A stretch of 64,000 nucleotides of DNA from Thermoleophilia bacterium SCSIO 60948 (GTDB lineage Bacteria; Actinomycetota; Thermoleophilia; Solirubrobacterales; 70-9), in contig CP053031.1 of assembly GCA_021496505.1 (NCBI GenBank), positions 868,001 to 932,000 of the forward strand. Reading direction: 5' to 3'. The notes beneath the pieces were generated by a model. It did not search any database. It was given only the letters and a program-made list of their open reading frames with translations, and was not told the origin of the DNA. The position numbers were made by a program, and so were the translations under genes. The stretch's first letter is position 1, and each line of letters starts with the position of its first letter. Positions 30,265 through 52,134 of this stretch are shown here, in pieces.

Positions 30265-30414
30265 GATGCTGCGCCCCGCATGCTCAGGGTACCCGCCGAC
30301 GGATACTGAACCACCCCTGAGGTGTGGCGGGGGCGGTGCGCGTGAAGGACGCGGAGCGCTCAGGGCGAAATCCGGCGACTGCGGGTTCCCGTCGGGAAAC
30401 GGCGAGCGCCCTCC

Positions 30415-30420
30415 TATCCT
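30415..30420 (+). promoter_or_regulatory. Probable -10 box of rpoD (TATCCT)
   Basis: TATCCT sits 53 bases before the rpoD ATG. A 13-bp palindrome TTCCCG-T-CGGGAA (30386-30398) lies where the -35 region would be and could be a regulator site. Unlike many genes here, rpoD has a true leader with an AGCGGAGAGAG ribosome-binding site. Confidence 0.4.
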
Positions 30421-30473
30421 CGTCTGTGCCGTATCGAGGGTCAACGAGTCGAGAAAGCGGAGAGAGCGCGCGG

Positions 30474-31583
30474 ATGCTGATCGCTGAACTTCAGGAGCTC
30501 GAAGAGGTCAAGAACCTCCTCGCCAAGGGCCAGACCGAGGGTGTCATCAGCTACGGCGAGGTGGCGACCGCACTGTCCGAGGTCGATGTCGAAGAGGGCG
30601 ACATCGAGGAGCTCTACGGGTTCATCGAGGGTCGCGGCGTAGAGCTCGTCGACGACCCGGATCCCCACCAGACCGCCGCTCCGACCCAGGCCGAGCCGCC
30701 TGAGACCAAGCGCGGCGGGCGCCGGCGCAAGTCGAGCGCGATCGACCTCAAGCCGGACATGACGACGGACAGCCTGCAGCTGTTCCTCAAGGACATCGGC
30801 AAGGTCCGCCTGCTGACCGCCCAGGAGGAGGTCGACCTCGCCAAGCGGATCGAGCGCGGCGACCTCGATGCGAAGCAGAAGATGGTCGAGTCGAACCTCC
30901 GCCTCGTCGTCTCGATCGCCAAGAACTACCGCAACCAGGGACTTCCCTTCCTCGACCTGATCCAGGAGGGCACGCTCGGCCTCGTCCGCGCCGCGGAGAA
31001 GTTCGACTACCGCAAGGGCTTCAAGTTCTCGACCTACGCGACCTGGTGGATCCGCCAGGCGATCGCACGGGCGCTCGCCGACAAGGCGCGGACGATCCGG
31101 ATCCCGGTCCACGTCGTCGAGAAGCTGAACAAGATCGGTCGCGCCGAGCGCAAGCTCGTAACCGAGCTCGGCCGCGAGCCGACCCCGGAGGAGATCGCCG
31201 ACGTCACCGGCATCGACCCCGAGGAGGTCGACCAGATCAAGCGCTCCGCGCAGGCCCCGGTCTCGCTCGAGAAGCCGGTCGGCGACGAGGAGGAGTCGGA
31301 GTTCGGTCAGTTCATCGCCGACGAGAAGGCCGAATCCCCGTTCGACCGCGCCGCAGATCTCCTGACCAAGGAGGCGCTCCGCGAGGCGCTCGAGAACCTC
31401 TCCTACCGCGAGCGCCGCGTGCTCGAGCTGCGCTACGGGCTCGGCGGCGAGCATCCGCGGACGCTCGACGAGGTCGGTCGCACGTTCAACGTCACGCGCG
31501 AGCGGATCCGCCAGATCGAGAACCAGAGCCTGAAGAAGCTCCAGTCCCTCGCCGAAGCGCAGAAGCTTCGCGAGGTGGCCTGA
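30474..31583 (+). CDS. rpoD: Principal RNA polymerase sigma factor (sigma-70, RpoD/SigA)
   Basis: 369 residues from the ATG at 30474. Region 1.1-like N-terminus ([23 protein letters not shown]), a short charged linker, region 1.2 ([29 protein letters not shown]), regions 2.1-2.4 ([56 protein letters not shown]) and 3.0-4.2 to the [16 protein letters not shown] recognition helix. The intact 1.1 and the perfect region 2 mark it as the housekeeping factor rather than an alternative one. It directs core polymerase to -10/-35 promoters. The copy-1 intergenic repeat follows directly after its stop. Confidence 0.96.
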
Positions 31584-31680
31584 CGGGCGGACCGGGCGCC
31601 TGGCGGCGTCGTCGGTCGGTCGTGTGCGGAGCACACTTCCCTTCCCTGCCTCCTGGCCAGTCGCCCGCTCCGCCTCGTCA
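31584..31680 (+). repeat. Intergenic palindromic repeat, copy 1 (diverged)
   Basis: Centred on GTGTGCGGAGCACAC (31622-31636), six-base arms around GGA. The shared core with the other copies is about 40 bases: TCGGTCGGTC, the palindrome, then a pyrimidine-rich TTCCCTTCCCTGC. The outer parts of copies 2 and 3 are not conserved here. It fills the space between the rpoD stop and pilT. Confidence 0.7.
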
Positions 31681-31765
31681 GGGCGCGCTGACGCTGGACT
31701 GAGCGAGGCAGGATTTTCGTCCAGCGGTTTAAGCGGGCCCGCGGTTCGCCCGATGAGAGGGGCGT

Positions 31766-37841: not shown

Positions 37842-39284
37842 ATGGGTCTCTTCAACCGCCGATCGCGCAAGGCTGCAAACGAGGCCGAGGATCGCTCGGA
37901 TGAGCAACTCTCGCTGACCTCCGACGGACAGGCACCGAGCGAGGCCGAGTCTCCCTCCGGGGTCGGCGTCGAGCCGATCCCGCCGGAGCCCGAGCCGCAG
38001 TCGGTCGCCGAGGCGCCGGCCGACGAGCCCGCGCCCGCCGCAGTCCCTGACCCCGCGCCCGAGGCGCCGGTCGCCGAGACCGCCGAGCCGGCGATGCCCG
38101 ACGTCGCGGCCGACCCCAGCCCGCGGGCCGCGGCCACCTTGCCGTCCGAGACCGATCCCGAGCCGGCCACCGCCCAGCCGAGCGCGGAGGCCGACGGTCC
38201 CCGATCCGAGGCCGAAGACTGGTGGGGCGATTCCGAGGGCGCCGAGTGGTTCGGTCAGACGAACCGCGGCCGCGCGCGCGGCGCCGTCACGCGGCCCGAG
38301 CCGCTGGGCGAGGAGCTCGAGCGCAAGCTCGACGCGGGCGACGGCGGGATCTCGATCTCGCGCGGCGCGGACGAGCCTTCGATTGCGTCCGAAGATGCTG
38401 GTGCGACGGGCGGGGAACCGGCCGATGAGGAGCCCGCCGACGACCGGATCTCGGCGGCGCAGGCACTCTCGCCACGTCGCGAGCGCCGCTCGGAGGCCGC
38501 CGAGTCCGACGAGGGCCCGCTCGGCACGACCAAGGTCATCTCCTTCGCCAACCAGAAGGGCGGCGTCGCGAAGACGACGACGACGCTCAATCTCGCGGTC
38601 GCCTTCGCCGAGTCCGGCCACCGCGTCCTCGTCATCGACCTCGATCCGCAGGGCAACCTGACGATGAGCCAGGGGATCGACCCCGACCGCGTCGAGCGCT
38701 CGATGTACGATGTCCTCGTCCATCACGCTCCGATCCGCGAGGTGATCCACCAGCGCGAGATCGACATCGCCGTCGCCTCGATCGATCTCGCCGGCGCCGA
38801 GATCGCGATGTCGACCCAGATCGGCCGTGAGCGCTCGCTGGAGAAGGCGCTGAAGGAGATCGCCGGCGAGTACGACTTCGTCTGCATCGACACGCCGCCC
38901 AGTCTCGGCCTGCTGACGATCAACGCGCTGACCGCCTCCGACAAGGTGATCGTGCCGGTCCAGTGCGAGTATCTGTCGATGCGCGGCCTCGTTCAGCTCC
39001 AGAACACGCTCGAGATGATCCGCGAGAACCTCAACCCGCGGGTCGAGATCGAAGGCATCCTGCCGACGATGCTGGACTCGAGGACGGTCCACGCCAAGGA
39101 GGCGATCGAGATCCTCGAGGAGAACTTCGGCGAGCTCGTGTTCAAGTCGCGGATCCGCAAGGCGATCAAGTTCGCCGAGGCACCGGTTCGCGGCAGCAGC
39201 GTCCTGAAGTACGATCCGGCGGGTAACGCGGCCGGCTACTACAGGGCGCTGGCCAAGGAGGTTCTGACGGATGACGCGTCGTAA
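37842..39284 (+). CDS. ParA/MinD-superfamily ATPase with 228-residue disordered N-terminal extension
   Basis: 480 residues where plain ParA has about 260. Residues 1-228 are acidic and Pro/Ala/Glu-rich, broken by a basic start (NRRSRK) and an aromatic cluster (EDWWGD, EWFGQ at about 125-138). The ATPase follows: KVISFANQKGGVAKTTTTLNLA (deviant Walker A at 239), DLDPQGNLTMSQG, FVCIDTPPSLGLLTINAL and a C-terminal GSSVLKYDPAGNAAGYYRALAKE. No parB partner or parS-like site is visible. It overlaps the FtsZ-like gene by 14 bp and so is probably made together with it; positioning that FtsZ, as MipZ or PomZ do, is inference. Confidence 0.88.
   Translation: MGLFNRRSRKAANEAEDRSDEQLSLTSDGQAPSEAESPSGVGVEPIPPEPEPQSVAEAPADEPAPAAVPDPAPEAPVAETAEPAMPDVAADPSPRAAATLPSETDPEPATAQPSAEADGPRSEAEDWWGDSEGAEWFGQTNRGRARGAVTRPEPLGEELERKLDAGDGGISISRGADEPSIASEDAGATGGEPADEEPADDRISAAQALSPRRERRSEAAESDEGPLGTTKVISFANQKGGVAKTTTTLNLAVAFAESGHRVLVIDLDPQGNLTMSQGIDPDRVERSMYDVLVHHAPIREVIHQREIDIAVASIDLAGAEIAMSTQIGRERSLEKALKEIAGEYDFVCIDTPPSLGLLTINALTASDKVIVPVQCEYLSMRGLVQLQNTLEMIRENLNPRVEIEGILPTMLDSRTVHAKEAIEILEENFGELVFKSRIRKAIKFAEAPVRGSSVLKYDPAGNAAGYYRALAKEVLTDDAS
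39255..39261 (+). promoter_or_regulatory. Strong ribosome-binding site for the FtsZ-like gene inside the ParA gene
   Basis: AAGGAGG lies nine bases before the ATG at 39271, within the last codons of the ParA gene. This fixes the start of the extended FtsZ at 39271 instead of the ATG at 39295. Confidence 0.75.
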
Positions 39285-40785
39285 GCGGGCCAGCATGAGA
39301 GAGGGACCGCTCGCGGACCTGTTCCGGTCGACCGTCGATCCCGACGATCCGCCGGCCCCGCCGGAGGAGCTGCGCTCCGATCGCGACGCCGAGGCGCGCG
39401 CGGCGGACCCCGAGCCCGAGCCCGCGCCCGCGAGCCGTCCGGTCGACGAGCGCTTCGCCGACGAGCCCTTCGCGGATGAGCCGTTCGCCGACGAACCGGT
39501 CGTCGAGCGCGCGCCGACCGCGCCGCGTGACCCGGTCCCGGAGTTCTCCCCGCGCGCCGACACCGGCGGACGGACCCCGCCGGCCAAGGAGCGCCTCAGC
39601 CGCATCTTCAACGACGAGCCCGACGTCGAGGGCCCGGCCTACGGTCGCGACGAGCCGACCCGCTGGTCGGCTCCCTCAGATCCGCGCCCGCACACGCCGG
39701 TGATCCGCGTCGTCGGCGTCGGAGGCGCGGGGGTCAACGCCGTCAACCGCATGGTCGAGGCGCAGATCCCGGGAGTCGAGTTCTTCGCCGTCAACACCGA
39801 CCTGCAGTCGCTGCAGCAGTCGACGGCGGACGTCACCGTCCACCTCGGCAGCGGCGTCTCGCGCGGCCTCGGAGCCGGATCGGACCCGGAGCTCGGCTAC
39901 CGCGCCGCGTTCGGCGAGCAGGACAAGATCAAGCGGCTGCTCAAGGGCTCGGACCTCGTCTTCGTGACCGCCGGCGCGGGCGGTGGCACCGGCACGGGCG
40001 CCGGCCCCGTCATCGCGCGGCTCGCGCGTGACGTCGGCGCGCTCACGGTCGGCATCGTCACGCGGCCGTTCGCCTTCGAGGGCACGCGGCGCTCGAAGCA
40101 GGCCGAGGAGGGGATCGAGGCGCTCGCGGCCGAGGTCGACACCCTGATCGTCGTCCCGAACGAGCGCCTGCTGAGCGTCCTCGCCAAGACGACGACGATG
40201 CTCGAGGCCTTCGAGGTCGCCGACGACGTCCTGCGCCAGGGCGTCCAGGGGATCTCCGAGTTGATCACGCTCCCGGGCCTGATCAACCTCGACTTCGCCG
40301 ACGTTCGCACGACGATGCGAGACGCCGGCCACGCGCTGCTCGGCATCGGCATGGGGACGGGCGAGAATCGCGCGACCTCGGCCGCCGAGAAGGCCGTCTC
40401 CTCGCCGCTGCTCGAGACCTCAGTCGACGGAGCCCGCTCGATCCTGCTGTCGATCACGAGCGGCCCGGACCTCGGCCTGCTCGAGGCTTCCGAGGCCGCG
40501 AAGGTCGTCCAGAACGCCGCTCACCCCGAGGCCAACATCATCTTCGGCGCATCGATCGACGACTCGCTGACCGACCAGGTCTGGGTCACGGTGATCGCGA
40601 CCCGCTACGACGGCCGCGGCCGTCGCACGGACGGGAGCGGTGGGCGCGAGCTGCGCGCACCGGGCCCGGTCCAGACCTCGGGCCGACGCCCCGAGGAGCG
40701 CCGCCCCGGCTCGGCACCCGGTTTCGAGTCGCGGCCCGGTGATCTCGGGATCGAGGTGCCGGAGTTCGTACCCGGCAATCGTTGA
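39271..40785 (+). CDS. ftsZ: FtsZ with a 140-residue N-terminal extension
   Basis: 504 residues where FtsZ has 320-400. Residues 1-140 are acidic, Pro-rich and repetitive (RFADEPFADEPFADEP at 61-76). The GTPase core then follows complete: VVGVGGAGVNAVNRM, AVNTDLQSL, the signature GAGGGTGTGAGP (about 235-246), RPFAFEGTRR, and the synergy loop NLDFAD (339-344) needed for hydrolysis between subunits. The tail ends GIEVPEFVPGNR, like the FtsZ tail that binds FtsA/SepF. So it should be an active polymerising GTPase. No dcw genes (ftsW, murG, ftsQ) adjoin it. It may be the only FtsZ or a second copy; the window cannot tell. Confidence 0.9.
   Translation: MTRRKRASMREGPLADLFRSTVDPDDPPAPPEELRSDRDAEARAADPEPEPAPASRPVDERFADEPFADEPFADEPVVERAPTAPRDPVPEFSPRADTGGRTPPAKERLSRIFNDEPDVEGPAYGRDEPTRWSAPSDPRPHTPVIRVVGVGGAGVNAVNRMVEAQIPGVEFFAVNTDLQSLQQSTADVTVHLGSGVSRGLGAGSDPELGYRAAFGEQDKIKRLLKGSDLVFVTAGAGGGTGTGAGPVIARLARDVGALTVGIVTRPFAFEGTRRSKQAEEGIEALAAEVDTLIVVPNERLLSVLAKTTTMLEAFEVADDVLRQGVQGISELITLPGLINLDFADVRTTMRDAGHALLGIGMGTGENRATSAAEKAVSSPLLETSVDGARSILLSITSGPDLGLLEASEAAKVVQNAAHPEANIIFGASIDDSLTDQVWVTVIATRYDGRGRRTDGSGGRELRAPGPVQTSGRRPEERRPGSAPGFESRPGDLGIEVPEFVPGNR
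39454..39498 (+). repeat. Three tandem 15-bp units inside the FtsZ-like extension
   Basis: Units at 39454-39468, 39469-39483 and 39484-39498 each encode FADEP. The DNA copies differ at synonymous sites, so the repeat is under protein-level rather than DNA-level constraint, or is old. Confidence 0.75.
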
Positions 40786-40806: not shown

Positions 40807-40915
40807 AGGGCGGGGCCTGCAAAGCGGCGCCACTCGGTGTCATCGGCTCGTCGTGTGCGGAGCACACGTCCTCGCCTGCTTCCCCCGATTGGCTTGCTTT
40901 TCGGCCCCGTTCGGT
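40807..40915 (+). repeat. Intergenic palindromic repeat, copy 2
   Basis: A 109-bp element that aligns without gaps to copy 3, about 80 percent identical by hand count. The left block is AGGGCGGGGCCTGCAAAGCG (40807-40826), the centre GTGTGCGGAGCACAC (40853-40867) and the right block GCTTGCTTTTCGGCC (about 40892-40906). It lies between the FtsZ-like gene and ggt. Confidence 0.85.
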
Positions 40916-40951
40916 TGACGAGCCGAACGCCCTGAGTTGATCGGTCCTCCC

Positions 40952-40957
40952 TAGAGT
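40952..40957 (+). promoter_or_regulatory. Probable -10 box of ggt (TAGAGT)
   Basis: TAGAGT is seven bases before the GTG at 40965, consistent with a leaderless mRNA. No -35 at proper spacing is obvious. Confidence 0.4.
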
Positions 40958-40964
40958 CGCTTCG

Positions 40965-42524
40965 GTGGGACGGGAGGGTCGAGGTGGGGTCGTCGCCGCT
41001 GGGCATCGGCTGACCGCCGAGGCGGGGGCGCGGGCGTTCGCGGAGGGCGGCAACGCCGTCGATGCCGCGCTCGCGGCGGTGATGGCCTCTTTCGCGTGCG
41101 AGAGCCCGCTGACCGCGCTCGGCGCCGGCGGACACATGCTCGTCCACGGCTTCGGCGACGACGTCGCGCTCGACTTCTTCGTCGAGGTGCCCGGTCGCGA
41201 CGCCGGCGAGCGCGCCGAGCTCGTCGAGGCCGAGATCTGGTTCAACGAGCGCGTCCCGCAGACCTTCCACGTCGGGGCCGCATCGTGCGCGGTGCCGGGG
41301 GTCCCCGCCGGCCTCGCACACGCCGCCTCGCGGTGGGCGTCGCTCCCGTTCGGCGTCCTCGCCGAGCCGGCCGTGGAGCTCGCCTCCCGCGGTGTCGAGA
41401 TGACCGCCGAGCAGGCGTACTTCCACGAGATCCTCGACCCGATCCTCTCGCTCGAGGCCGAGGGCGCCGCCTCCTACTCGCCCGCCGGCCGGCCGCTGCT
41501 CGCGGGTGAGCGACTGGCGATGCCCGACCTGGCCGACGGCCTGCGACTGCTCGCAGCGGAGGGCGCCGAGCCGTTCTACCGCGGCGAGACCGCGCGCCGG
41601 ATCGTCGACTTCGTCGCCGAGCGCGGCGGGATCATCGGGGCCGCGGACCTCGCCGCCTACCGCCCCGTCGAGCGCGAGCCGGTGCGGGTCGCATTCGCGG
41701 GGCGCGAGCTCGTGACCAACCCGCCGCCGTCCTCGGGCGGCGTCCTGATCGCGCTCGCGCTCGCCGCGCTCGAGCGCGCGGACCGGCGCGACGTCGAGTC
41801 GATCGTTCGGGCGATGGCCGCGATCCAGGCGCTCCGCGACGCCGACTTCGCCGCGCGGCTGGCCGTGCCGGGCTTCGCGGACGAGTTGCTGGCCGATGAC
41901 CACATCGCCCGGATCACCGCGTCCGCGGAGGCGGCGGGGCCGCTGCCGGGGTCGGCCCCCGGCGGCCGGCTCGGCTCGACGACGCACGTCACCGCCGTCG
42001 ACGTCGCAGGGCGTTGCGCGAGCGTGACGTGCTCGAACGGGAGCAGCTCGGGCATCGTCGTCCCCGGCACCGGCGTCCACCTCAACAACATGCTGGGCGA
42101 GCAGGACCTCAACCCGCTCGGCTTCCACCGTTTCGAACCCGGGGTTCGGATGCCCTCGATGATGTCGCCGAGCGTCGTCCTCGGCCCCGGCGGGCTCGAG
42201 CTCGGCCTCGGGAGCGGCGGATCGAACAGGATCCGCTCGGCGATCCTCCAGGTCGTCCTGCGCGCCACCCGCGAGTCGATGCCGCTCGAGGCGGCGATCG
42301 CCGCGCCGCGGGTCCACTTCGAGAACGGGGAGGTCCAGGCCGAGCCCGGCGCCGACCCCGCGGCGCTGGCCGCGCTCGAGGCGAGTGGGGCGACCGTCGA
42401 GCGCTGGGACGCGCCGAACGTCTTCTTCGGCGGCGTCCACGCGGTCGCGCGCGACGGTGAGGGGCGTCTCGAGGGTGCGGGCGACCCGCGCCGCGGCGGT
42501 GCCGTTGCGGCGGCCGGCTCCTAG
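40965..42524 (+). CDS. ggt: Gamma-glutamyltransferase-like Ntn hydrolase
   Basis: 519 residues from a GTG. The self-processing site is GSTTHVTAVD with the Thr nucleophile at 339, which after cleavage becomes the N-terminus of the small subunit. GGNAVDAALAA near the start, NPPPSSGGVL, LNNMLGEQDLNP and GSGGSNRIRSAILQVV complete the family pattern. These enzymes cleave gamma-glutamyl bonds of glutathione-like compounds and can transfer the glutamyl group. Unlike secreted GGTs there is no signal peptide, so this one should act in the cytoplasm. Ends with a 4-bp overlap (CTAG) with the convergent LON-domain gene. Confidence 0.9.
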   Translation: MGREGRGGVVAAGHRLTAEAGARAFAEGGNAVDAALAAVMASFACESPLTALGAGGHMLVHGFGDDVALDFFVEVPGRDAGERAELVEAEIWFNERVPQTFHVGAASCAVPGVPAGLAHAASRWASLPFGVLAEPAVELASRGVEMTAEQAYFHEILDPILSLEAEGAASYSPAGRPLLAGERLAMPDLADGLRLLAAEGAEPFYRGETARRIVDFVAERGGIIGAADLAAYRPVEREPVRVAFAGRELVTNPPPSSGGVLIALALAALERADRRDVESIVRAMAAIQALRDADFAARLAVPGFADELLADDHIARITASAEAAGPLPGSAPGGRLGSTTHVTAVDVAGRCASVTCSNGSSSGIVVPGTGVHLNNMLGEQDLNPLGFHRFEPGVRMPSMMSPSVVLGPGGLELGLGSGGSNRIRSAILQVVLRATRESMPLEAAIAAPRVHFENGEVQAEPGADPAALAALEASGATVERWDAPNVFFGGVHAVARDGEGRLEGAGDPRRGGAVAAAGS

Positions 42525-52025: not shown

Positions 52026-52134
52026 AGGGCGGGGCCTGCAAAGCGTCGCCTGAGCGGGTCATCGGTCGGTCGTGTGCAGAGCACACGTCCCTCCCTGCTT
52101 CCCCGCTCATGCTTGCTTTTCGGCCACGTTCGGT
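52026..52134 (+). repeat. Intergenic palindromic repeat, copy 3
   Basis: Left block AGGGCGGGGCCTGCAAAGCG (52026-52045), centre GTGTGCAGAGCACAC (52072-52086), right block GCTTGCTTTTCGGCC (52111-52125). Same spacing as copy 2 with no insertion or deletion. It lies between the acyl-CoA dehydrogenase start and the GGDEF-EAL stop. Confidence 0.85.

What the first reader, a model, noticed from the sequence alone, without database searches (positions are those of the whole stretch)
40807..40915. A 109-bp intergenic repeat family centred on GTGTGC(G/A)GAGCACAC
Copies 2 (40807-40915) and 3 (52026-52134) align gap-free at about 80 percent identity over 109 bases, including an identical 20-base left block and an identical 15-base right block. 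Copy 1 (centre 31622-31636) shares about 40 bases around the palindrome. All three are intergenic. Three copies in 64 kb suggest many in the genome. Candidates: a non-autonomous mobile element, a structured RNA, a nucleoid or chromosome-segregation site, or a transcription-control module. The orientation differs relative to the flanking genes, so it is not simply a one-way terminator.
Basis: seen in the sequence. Interest (0 to 1): 0.7.

Follow-up and report, generated by a model that had tools for sequence, protein, structure and literature searches.

The report
Structured repeats at bacterial gene ends
The repeat is real: it belongs to a previously uncatalogued family of about 80-125-base hairpin elements, scattered in up to about 40 copies per genome in one class of soil bacteria, each sitting right at the end of a gene with the gene's stop codon often built into the base of the hairpin; what it does is not yet shown.

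Summary
In detail: copies 2 and 3 match at 88/109 bases without gaps, and copy 1 shares the centre. The genome holds 29 copies. A covariance model finds the family in 29 of 41 relatives (0-42 copies each). It is essentially confined to class Thermoleophilia and has no Rfam match.

Each copy is a rod-shaped imperfect hairpin: a conserved apical core, strong compensatory changes, and outer arms that are often gene-specific. Copies lie at gene 3' ends (also tRNA 3' ends). In tandem gene pairs 109 of 128 point the same way as the genes; only 6 of 200 lie between divergent genes. The stop codon usually sits about 40 nt before the apical hairpin, inside the stem base. Window copies follow rpoD and ftsZ; the third lies between two other genes.

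Folding energies and mismatch types favour the strand OPPOSITE the gene as the one that folds, though not uniformly. Copies come and go: the ftsZ junction is filled in four or five genomes and empty in eight, including a congener.

REP/RAYT, attC, phage/plasmid origin, a canonical U-tract terminator and an sRNA gene are not supported. Best reading: a dispersed, non-autonomous 3'-boundary hairpin, ERIC/REP-like in habit but a distinct family. Mechanism unproven.

The parts
31581..31689 (.). Copy 1: full-length element; left arm begins at the rpoD stop codon (TGA 31581-31583), apical hairpin 31622-31636, right arm pairs back to the stop codon
   Evidence: Covariance-model hit G000:C1:899590-899669, E 2e-10; fold and rpoD context
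40807..40915 (.). Copy 2: class-A element after ftsZ (stop TGA 40783-40785), apical hairpin 40853-40867
   Evidence: Hit G000:C1:908820-908900, E 1e-19; fold; ftsZ and gamma-glutamyltranspeptidase neighbours
52026..52134 (.). Copy 3: class-A element between two minus-strand genes, the only copy in this genome anti-oriented to its tandem neighbours; apical hairpin 52072-52086
   Evidence: Hit G000:C1:920039-920119, E 8e-20; fold; context
30324..31583 (+). rpoD (primary-type sigma-70), host gene of copy 1
   Evidence: Pfam Sigma70_r1.1, r1.2, r2, r3, r4
39271..40785 (+). ftsZ, host gene of copy 2
   Evidence: Pfam Tubulin and FtsZ_C

Best explanation
A dispersed, non-autonomous, structured 3'-end element of Thermoleophilia. 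SHOWN by computation: each copy encodes a long imperfect rod with a conserved apical core; pairs in core and arms covary; copies abut gene 3' ends, usually with the stop codon in the stem base; copies differ between close relatives. INFERRED: as a single strand, most likely RNA, the rod is a boundary at the gene end that halts or protects, and the conserved internal loops of the apex bind a host factor. The strand opposite the gene folds better, so the main job is more likely to act on transcripts entering the gene from downstream (an antisense block) than as the gene's own terminator. Rough odds: 0.95 for family, structure and 3'-end position; 0.7 for the opposite strand; 0.35 for the boundary mechanism in that direction. 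The confidence given is for the mechanism.
For: Structure: 15 of 29 pairs change on both sides, no shuffle reaches the score and sliding destroys it; 89 cores pair in 97.7% of cells against 89.2% shuffled; pairs 23-61 and 31-52 switch between standard pairs. Position: 109:19 co-oriented in tandem pairs, 6 of 200 between divergent genes; stop codon mostly 39-44 nt before the apex with the helix reaching it; tRNA 3' ends at the same place. Host genes recur (rpoD, secA, gyrB, rpsG). Opposite strand: lower energy in 179/208 and 20/21, better z-scores in all three window copies, A.C over G.U mismatches on the gene strand in 67 elements against 25 and 44 species against 12, not seen in ordinary 3' hairpins (33 G.U, 30 A.C).
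Against: No antisense promoter or any conserved flank. No U-tract beside the stem (3 of 194). The mismatch bias is absent in the three best-sampled genomes (19:20 in G000, G008, G023), weak in the core (19:10), and conserved GG/UU pairs favour the gene strand. Raw energies of window copies 2 and 3 are nearly equal on both strands. Sporadic presence shows it is dispensable.
Confidence: 0.35

Rival explanations
1. Gene-strand 3' UTR element: in the host mRNA the hairpin stops RNA polymerase or blocks 3' exonucleases, so it is a terminator or stabiliser of the host gene (the role proposed for REP and ERIC copies).
For: Co-orientation with the upstream gene (109:19), placement at stop codons and tRNA ends, very stable gene-strand folds too, conserved gene-strand G.U pairs, and a B12 riboswitch starting 128 nt downstream of one copy (L048), suggesting a new transcription unit begins there.
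Against: No U-tract; the gene strand folds less well in 179/208; mismatches look like wobbles of the other strand; conserved UC/UC loops are not stabilising on this strand.
Confidence: 0.3
2. Selfish non-autonomous repeat: the structure serves only its own mobility, and the 3'-end position reflects targeting or tolerance there.
For: 0-42 copies in relatives; presence and absence within genera at rpoD and ftsZ; near-identical cores with different flanks in one genome; multi-copy arm class in this genome.
Against: No mobiliser found: RAYT and reverse transcriptase absent from this genome, no recurrent transposase neighbour, no phage, plasmid or viral match. Gene-specific complementary arms and homologous copies in different genera (G018 and G021 at ftsZ) point to long retention under constraint.
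Confidence: 0.25
3. Single-stranded DNA recombination or transposition site, like integron attC or IS200/IS605 ends, with the bottom strand active.
For: Preference for the strand opposite the gene, hairpin with unpaired bases, location after the gene: all as in attC (PMC2727003 and PMC6393395 abstracts).
Against: No integron integrase above cut-off in any genome but G033; attC core sites RYYYAAC and GTTRRRY not enriched; no Y1 transposase in this genome; copies are solitary, not in arrays.
Confidence: 0.07
4. Independent small-RNA gene family or riboswitch.
For: Conserved covarying structure.
Against: No conserved promoter or terminator in the flanks; downstream gene orientation near random (109 to 91), so it is not a 5' leader; no Rfam family.
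Confidence: 0.03

Closest known systems
ERIC sequences of enterobacteria
   Same: Intergenic imperfect palindromes of about 130 bp, multi-copy, transcribed, varying in copy number between relatives (established knowledge; reviewed in PMC2229807, found)
   Different: No sequence relation looked for beyond Rfam and the E. coli-free searches made here; here the arms are often gene-specific, the stop codon is in the stem, and one strand folds better
REP/BIME repeats with RAYT transposases
   Same: Short palindromes at gene 3' ends
   Different: Longer, with a conserved multi-loop apex; no RAYT in this genome or in the high-copy genomes G008, G021 and G023
Integron attC sites
   Same: Sit after genes; structure conserved more than sequence; bottom strand preferred
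   Different: No attC core sites, no integron integrase here, solitary copies after housekeeping genes
Intrinsic (Rho-independent) terminators
   Same: Stable GC-rich hairpin right after a gene
   Different: Conserved 45-nt apex shared between loci; no U-tract (3 of 194)

Membership tests
REP/RAYT system | A Y1 (PF01797) RAYT transposase in the genome | tested here: not met
   No match in G000, G008, G021, G023; 7 of 41 genomes have any
Integron attC | Integron integrase (TIGR02249) in the genome | tested here: not met
   Only G033 passes the cut-off; other matches are general tyrosine recombinases
Integron attC | RYYYAAC and GTTRRRY core sites at the ends | tested here: not met
   3 and 4 of 209 against 4 and 2 in reversed controls
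Integron attC | Bottom-strand folding preference | tested here: met
   179/208 and 20/21 lower energy on the opposite strand; an analogy only
Intrinsic terminator | Run of T directly after the stem on the gene strand | tested here: not met
   TTTT within 12 nt in 3 of 194
Described RNA family (Rfam 15) | Match above the gathering score | tested here: not met
Dispersed intergenic palindromic repeats (the ERIC/REP-like kind) | Multi-copy, intergenic, inverted repeat, variable between relatives | tested here: met
ERIC family proper | Sequence homology to the ERIC consensus | not tested
   No direct comparison was made
mRNA-stability or termination element | Effect on RNA 3' ends or half-life | not testable with these tools
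   Needs RNA-seq or Term-seq

The most novel reading that the evidence does not exclude
A strand-specific hairpin system on the strand opposite the gene, whose stem is built from the gene's own last codons and stop codon plus an inverted copy of them placed downstream. It would guard gene 3' ends against antisense transcription, and the inverted copy would point to an unknown fold-back route of insertion or maintenance.
Probability: 0.25. Interest if true: 0.85.

Novelty: new variant of a known kind. Interest (0 to 1): 0.6.

Why it matters
It adds an uncatalogued structured repeat family, spread over a class of poorly studied soil bacteria, at the 3' ends of core genes (rpoD, ftsZ, secA, gyrB, rpsG, tRNAs). 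Natural filled and empty sites at the ftsZ and rpoD junctions make two open questions directly testable: what marks gene ends in GC-rich genomes that lack U-tract terminators at these sites, and how short palindromic repeats acquire gene-specific arms.

Tried and rejected
Rfam: nothing above threshold for the element. RAYT, reverse transcriptase and integron integrase as mobilisers. Phage, plasmid and viral collections: no match. Neighbour clustering for a mobiliser gene: mainly housekeeping genes recur. Replication-oriented DNA motif: 27/29 copies follow replication direction if the origin is near base 1 (p about 2e-4 against the sampled 63% gene bias), but gene orientation fits 28/29, and GC skew is too weak to map the origin. 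Antisense promoter: none found. The first, loose arm alignments did not separate arms from controls and were replaced by stricter scoring. Two literature searches on the host groups found nothing.

Full report
CHECK. Copies 2 and 3 are as described: 88/109 identical without gaps. Copy 1 is a full member with different arms. The 15-base centre is far above chance in the window and genome-wide (20 exact copies, 0 for the reversed pattern). The window is bases 868001-932000 of a 3.42-Mb single-contig genome.

FAMILY. A covariance model from 24 copies (R1) finds 29 copies in the genome at E<=1e-6 and at least one match in 29 of 41 relatives, with 0 to 42 copies each. Nearly all those listed are Solirubrobacterales, Thermoleophilaceae, Thermoleophilia or unclassified Actinomycetota MAGs; a few records labelled Frankiaceae, Acidobacteriaceae or Chlamydiae may be mis-binned contigs. 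In an even sample of the class 18 of 150 genomes match; across the phylum one marginal genome (E 7e-5) matches besides our own. No Rfam family matches.

ANATOMY (numbering of alignment A3, gene strand). The apex is GUCNUCGGUCGSUY-hairpin-NNCSCUCCCUGCNUCC. Pair 23-61 is C-G, A-U, G-C or G-U in different copies and pair 31-52 is C-G or G-C. Counted on 89 core sequences, 97.7% of cells pair against 89.2% in shuffles, and sliding the partner destroys it. On 24 full copies, 15 pairs change on both sides. The arms fall into classes: 19 copies in this genome share class-A arms (CUGCAAAGC...GCUUUUCG), and such arms recur in other families of the class. Other copies have arms unlike any other copy yet still complementary. 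Genome G008 also has a long-apex variant.

POSITION. With flanks called on both sides, 109 copies lie in tandem gene pairs co-oriented with them and 19 anti-oriented, 66 lie between convergent genes and only 6 of 200 between divergent genes. In 81 copies with a co-oriented stop codon nearby, the stop lies mostly 39-44 nt before the apical hairpin, and the helix usually reaches it or extends a few bases into the coding sequence. The same place is taken by tRNA 3' ends in L070 and L072 and, read by eye, in L079 and L161. Recurrent hosts include rpoD, secA, rpsG and gyrB (names other than those are read from C-terminal sequences by eye). No U-tract, promoter or other conserved flank was found. 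Gene calls come from a simple codon-composition script and are approximate.

WHICH STRAND. The opposite strand has the lower folding energy in 179 of 208 copies and in 20 of 21 further copies, mostly from distant families. The z-scores of the three window copies agree, although the raw energies of copies 2 and 3 are nearly equal on both strands. On the opposite strand the symmetric UC/UC loops read as tandem GA/GA, a stable RNA motif (established knowledge). Isolated mismatches in variable helices are A.C rather than G.U on the gene strand (67 elements against 25; 44 species against 12), that is G.U on the opposite strand, while ordinary 3' hairpins in the same loci show 33 G.U and 30 A.C. Caveats: in G000, G008 and G023 the bias is absent (19:20), the core alone gives 19:10, and conserved GG/UU pairs favour the gene strand. 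I lean to the opposite strand at about 0.7.

HISTORY. At rpoD five of the 30 fetched loci have a copy and a sixth (G012) a decayed one, while sister genomes have none. At ftsZ the next gene (ggt) usually follows after about 10-60 nt; G000, G019, G021 and G038 (weak match, E 2e-4) carry an element there and G018 a left half, while G001 (same genus as the window), G002, G008, G012, G015, G020, G023 and G024 are empty. In G021 the right arm contains CCTCTACCCAGG, the inverted copy of the last codons and stop (CCTGGGTAGAGG), which the empty junctions of the same genus lack. The G018 and G021 copies look homologous up to the stop codon, so loss as well as gain occurs. Compensated arms could also arise by quasi-palindrome template switching rather than selection; the A.C/G.U asymmetry argues against that as the sole cause but does not exclude it.

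MECHANISM. I commit to a 3'-boundary hairpin that spreads without its own genes, with a factor-binding apex, folding mainly on the strand opposite the gene; the direction of action is inferred, not shown. REP/RAYT and attC are rejected as families on tested features, although attC is a good analogue for strand choice and position.

NOVELTY. Dispersed palindromic repeats are a known kind. This family, its gene-specific stem that uses the stop codon, and its strand preference are not in the resources searched; two literature searches on the host groups returned nothing, which is weak evidence because only open papers are held.

Noticed in passing
window about 40945-40965 and L367: A TAGAGTCGC sequence just before the ggt gene is shared by the window genome and its congener G001 and may be a -10 promoter box, so ggt may have its own promoter downstream of the element.
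   Followed up: no
L048 1710-1895 (G000:C1 about 1,209,850): A cobalamin riboswitch (Rfam RF00174, 51.6 bits) begins 128 nt after one copy of the element, so a new transcription unit seems to start there.
   Followed up: no
L047 1501-1581 and 1589-1631 (G000:C1:1286865-1286995): Two copies in tandem; the second lacks its outer loop and arms.
   Followed up: partly
L271, L272, L275, L277, L278, L280-L283 (genome G008): A long variant in which the apical hairpin is extended by about 22 nt with an extra internal loop, together with CUGCAAACC...GGUUUUCG arms.
   Followed up: no
L234 and L254 (G011 and G023, downstream of rpoD): A different near-perfect palindrome (GAACATCCCGGCC...GGCCGGGATGTTCGA) just before the next gene (a secretion ATPase in the window), with or without the element beside it.
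   Followed up: no
L070, L072, L079, L161: Copies abut the 3' ends of tRNA genes, and the stem pairs with the tRNA's own acceptor strand in L070 and L072.
   Followed up: partly
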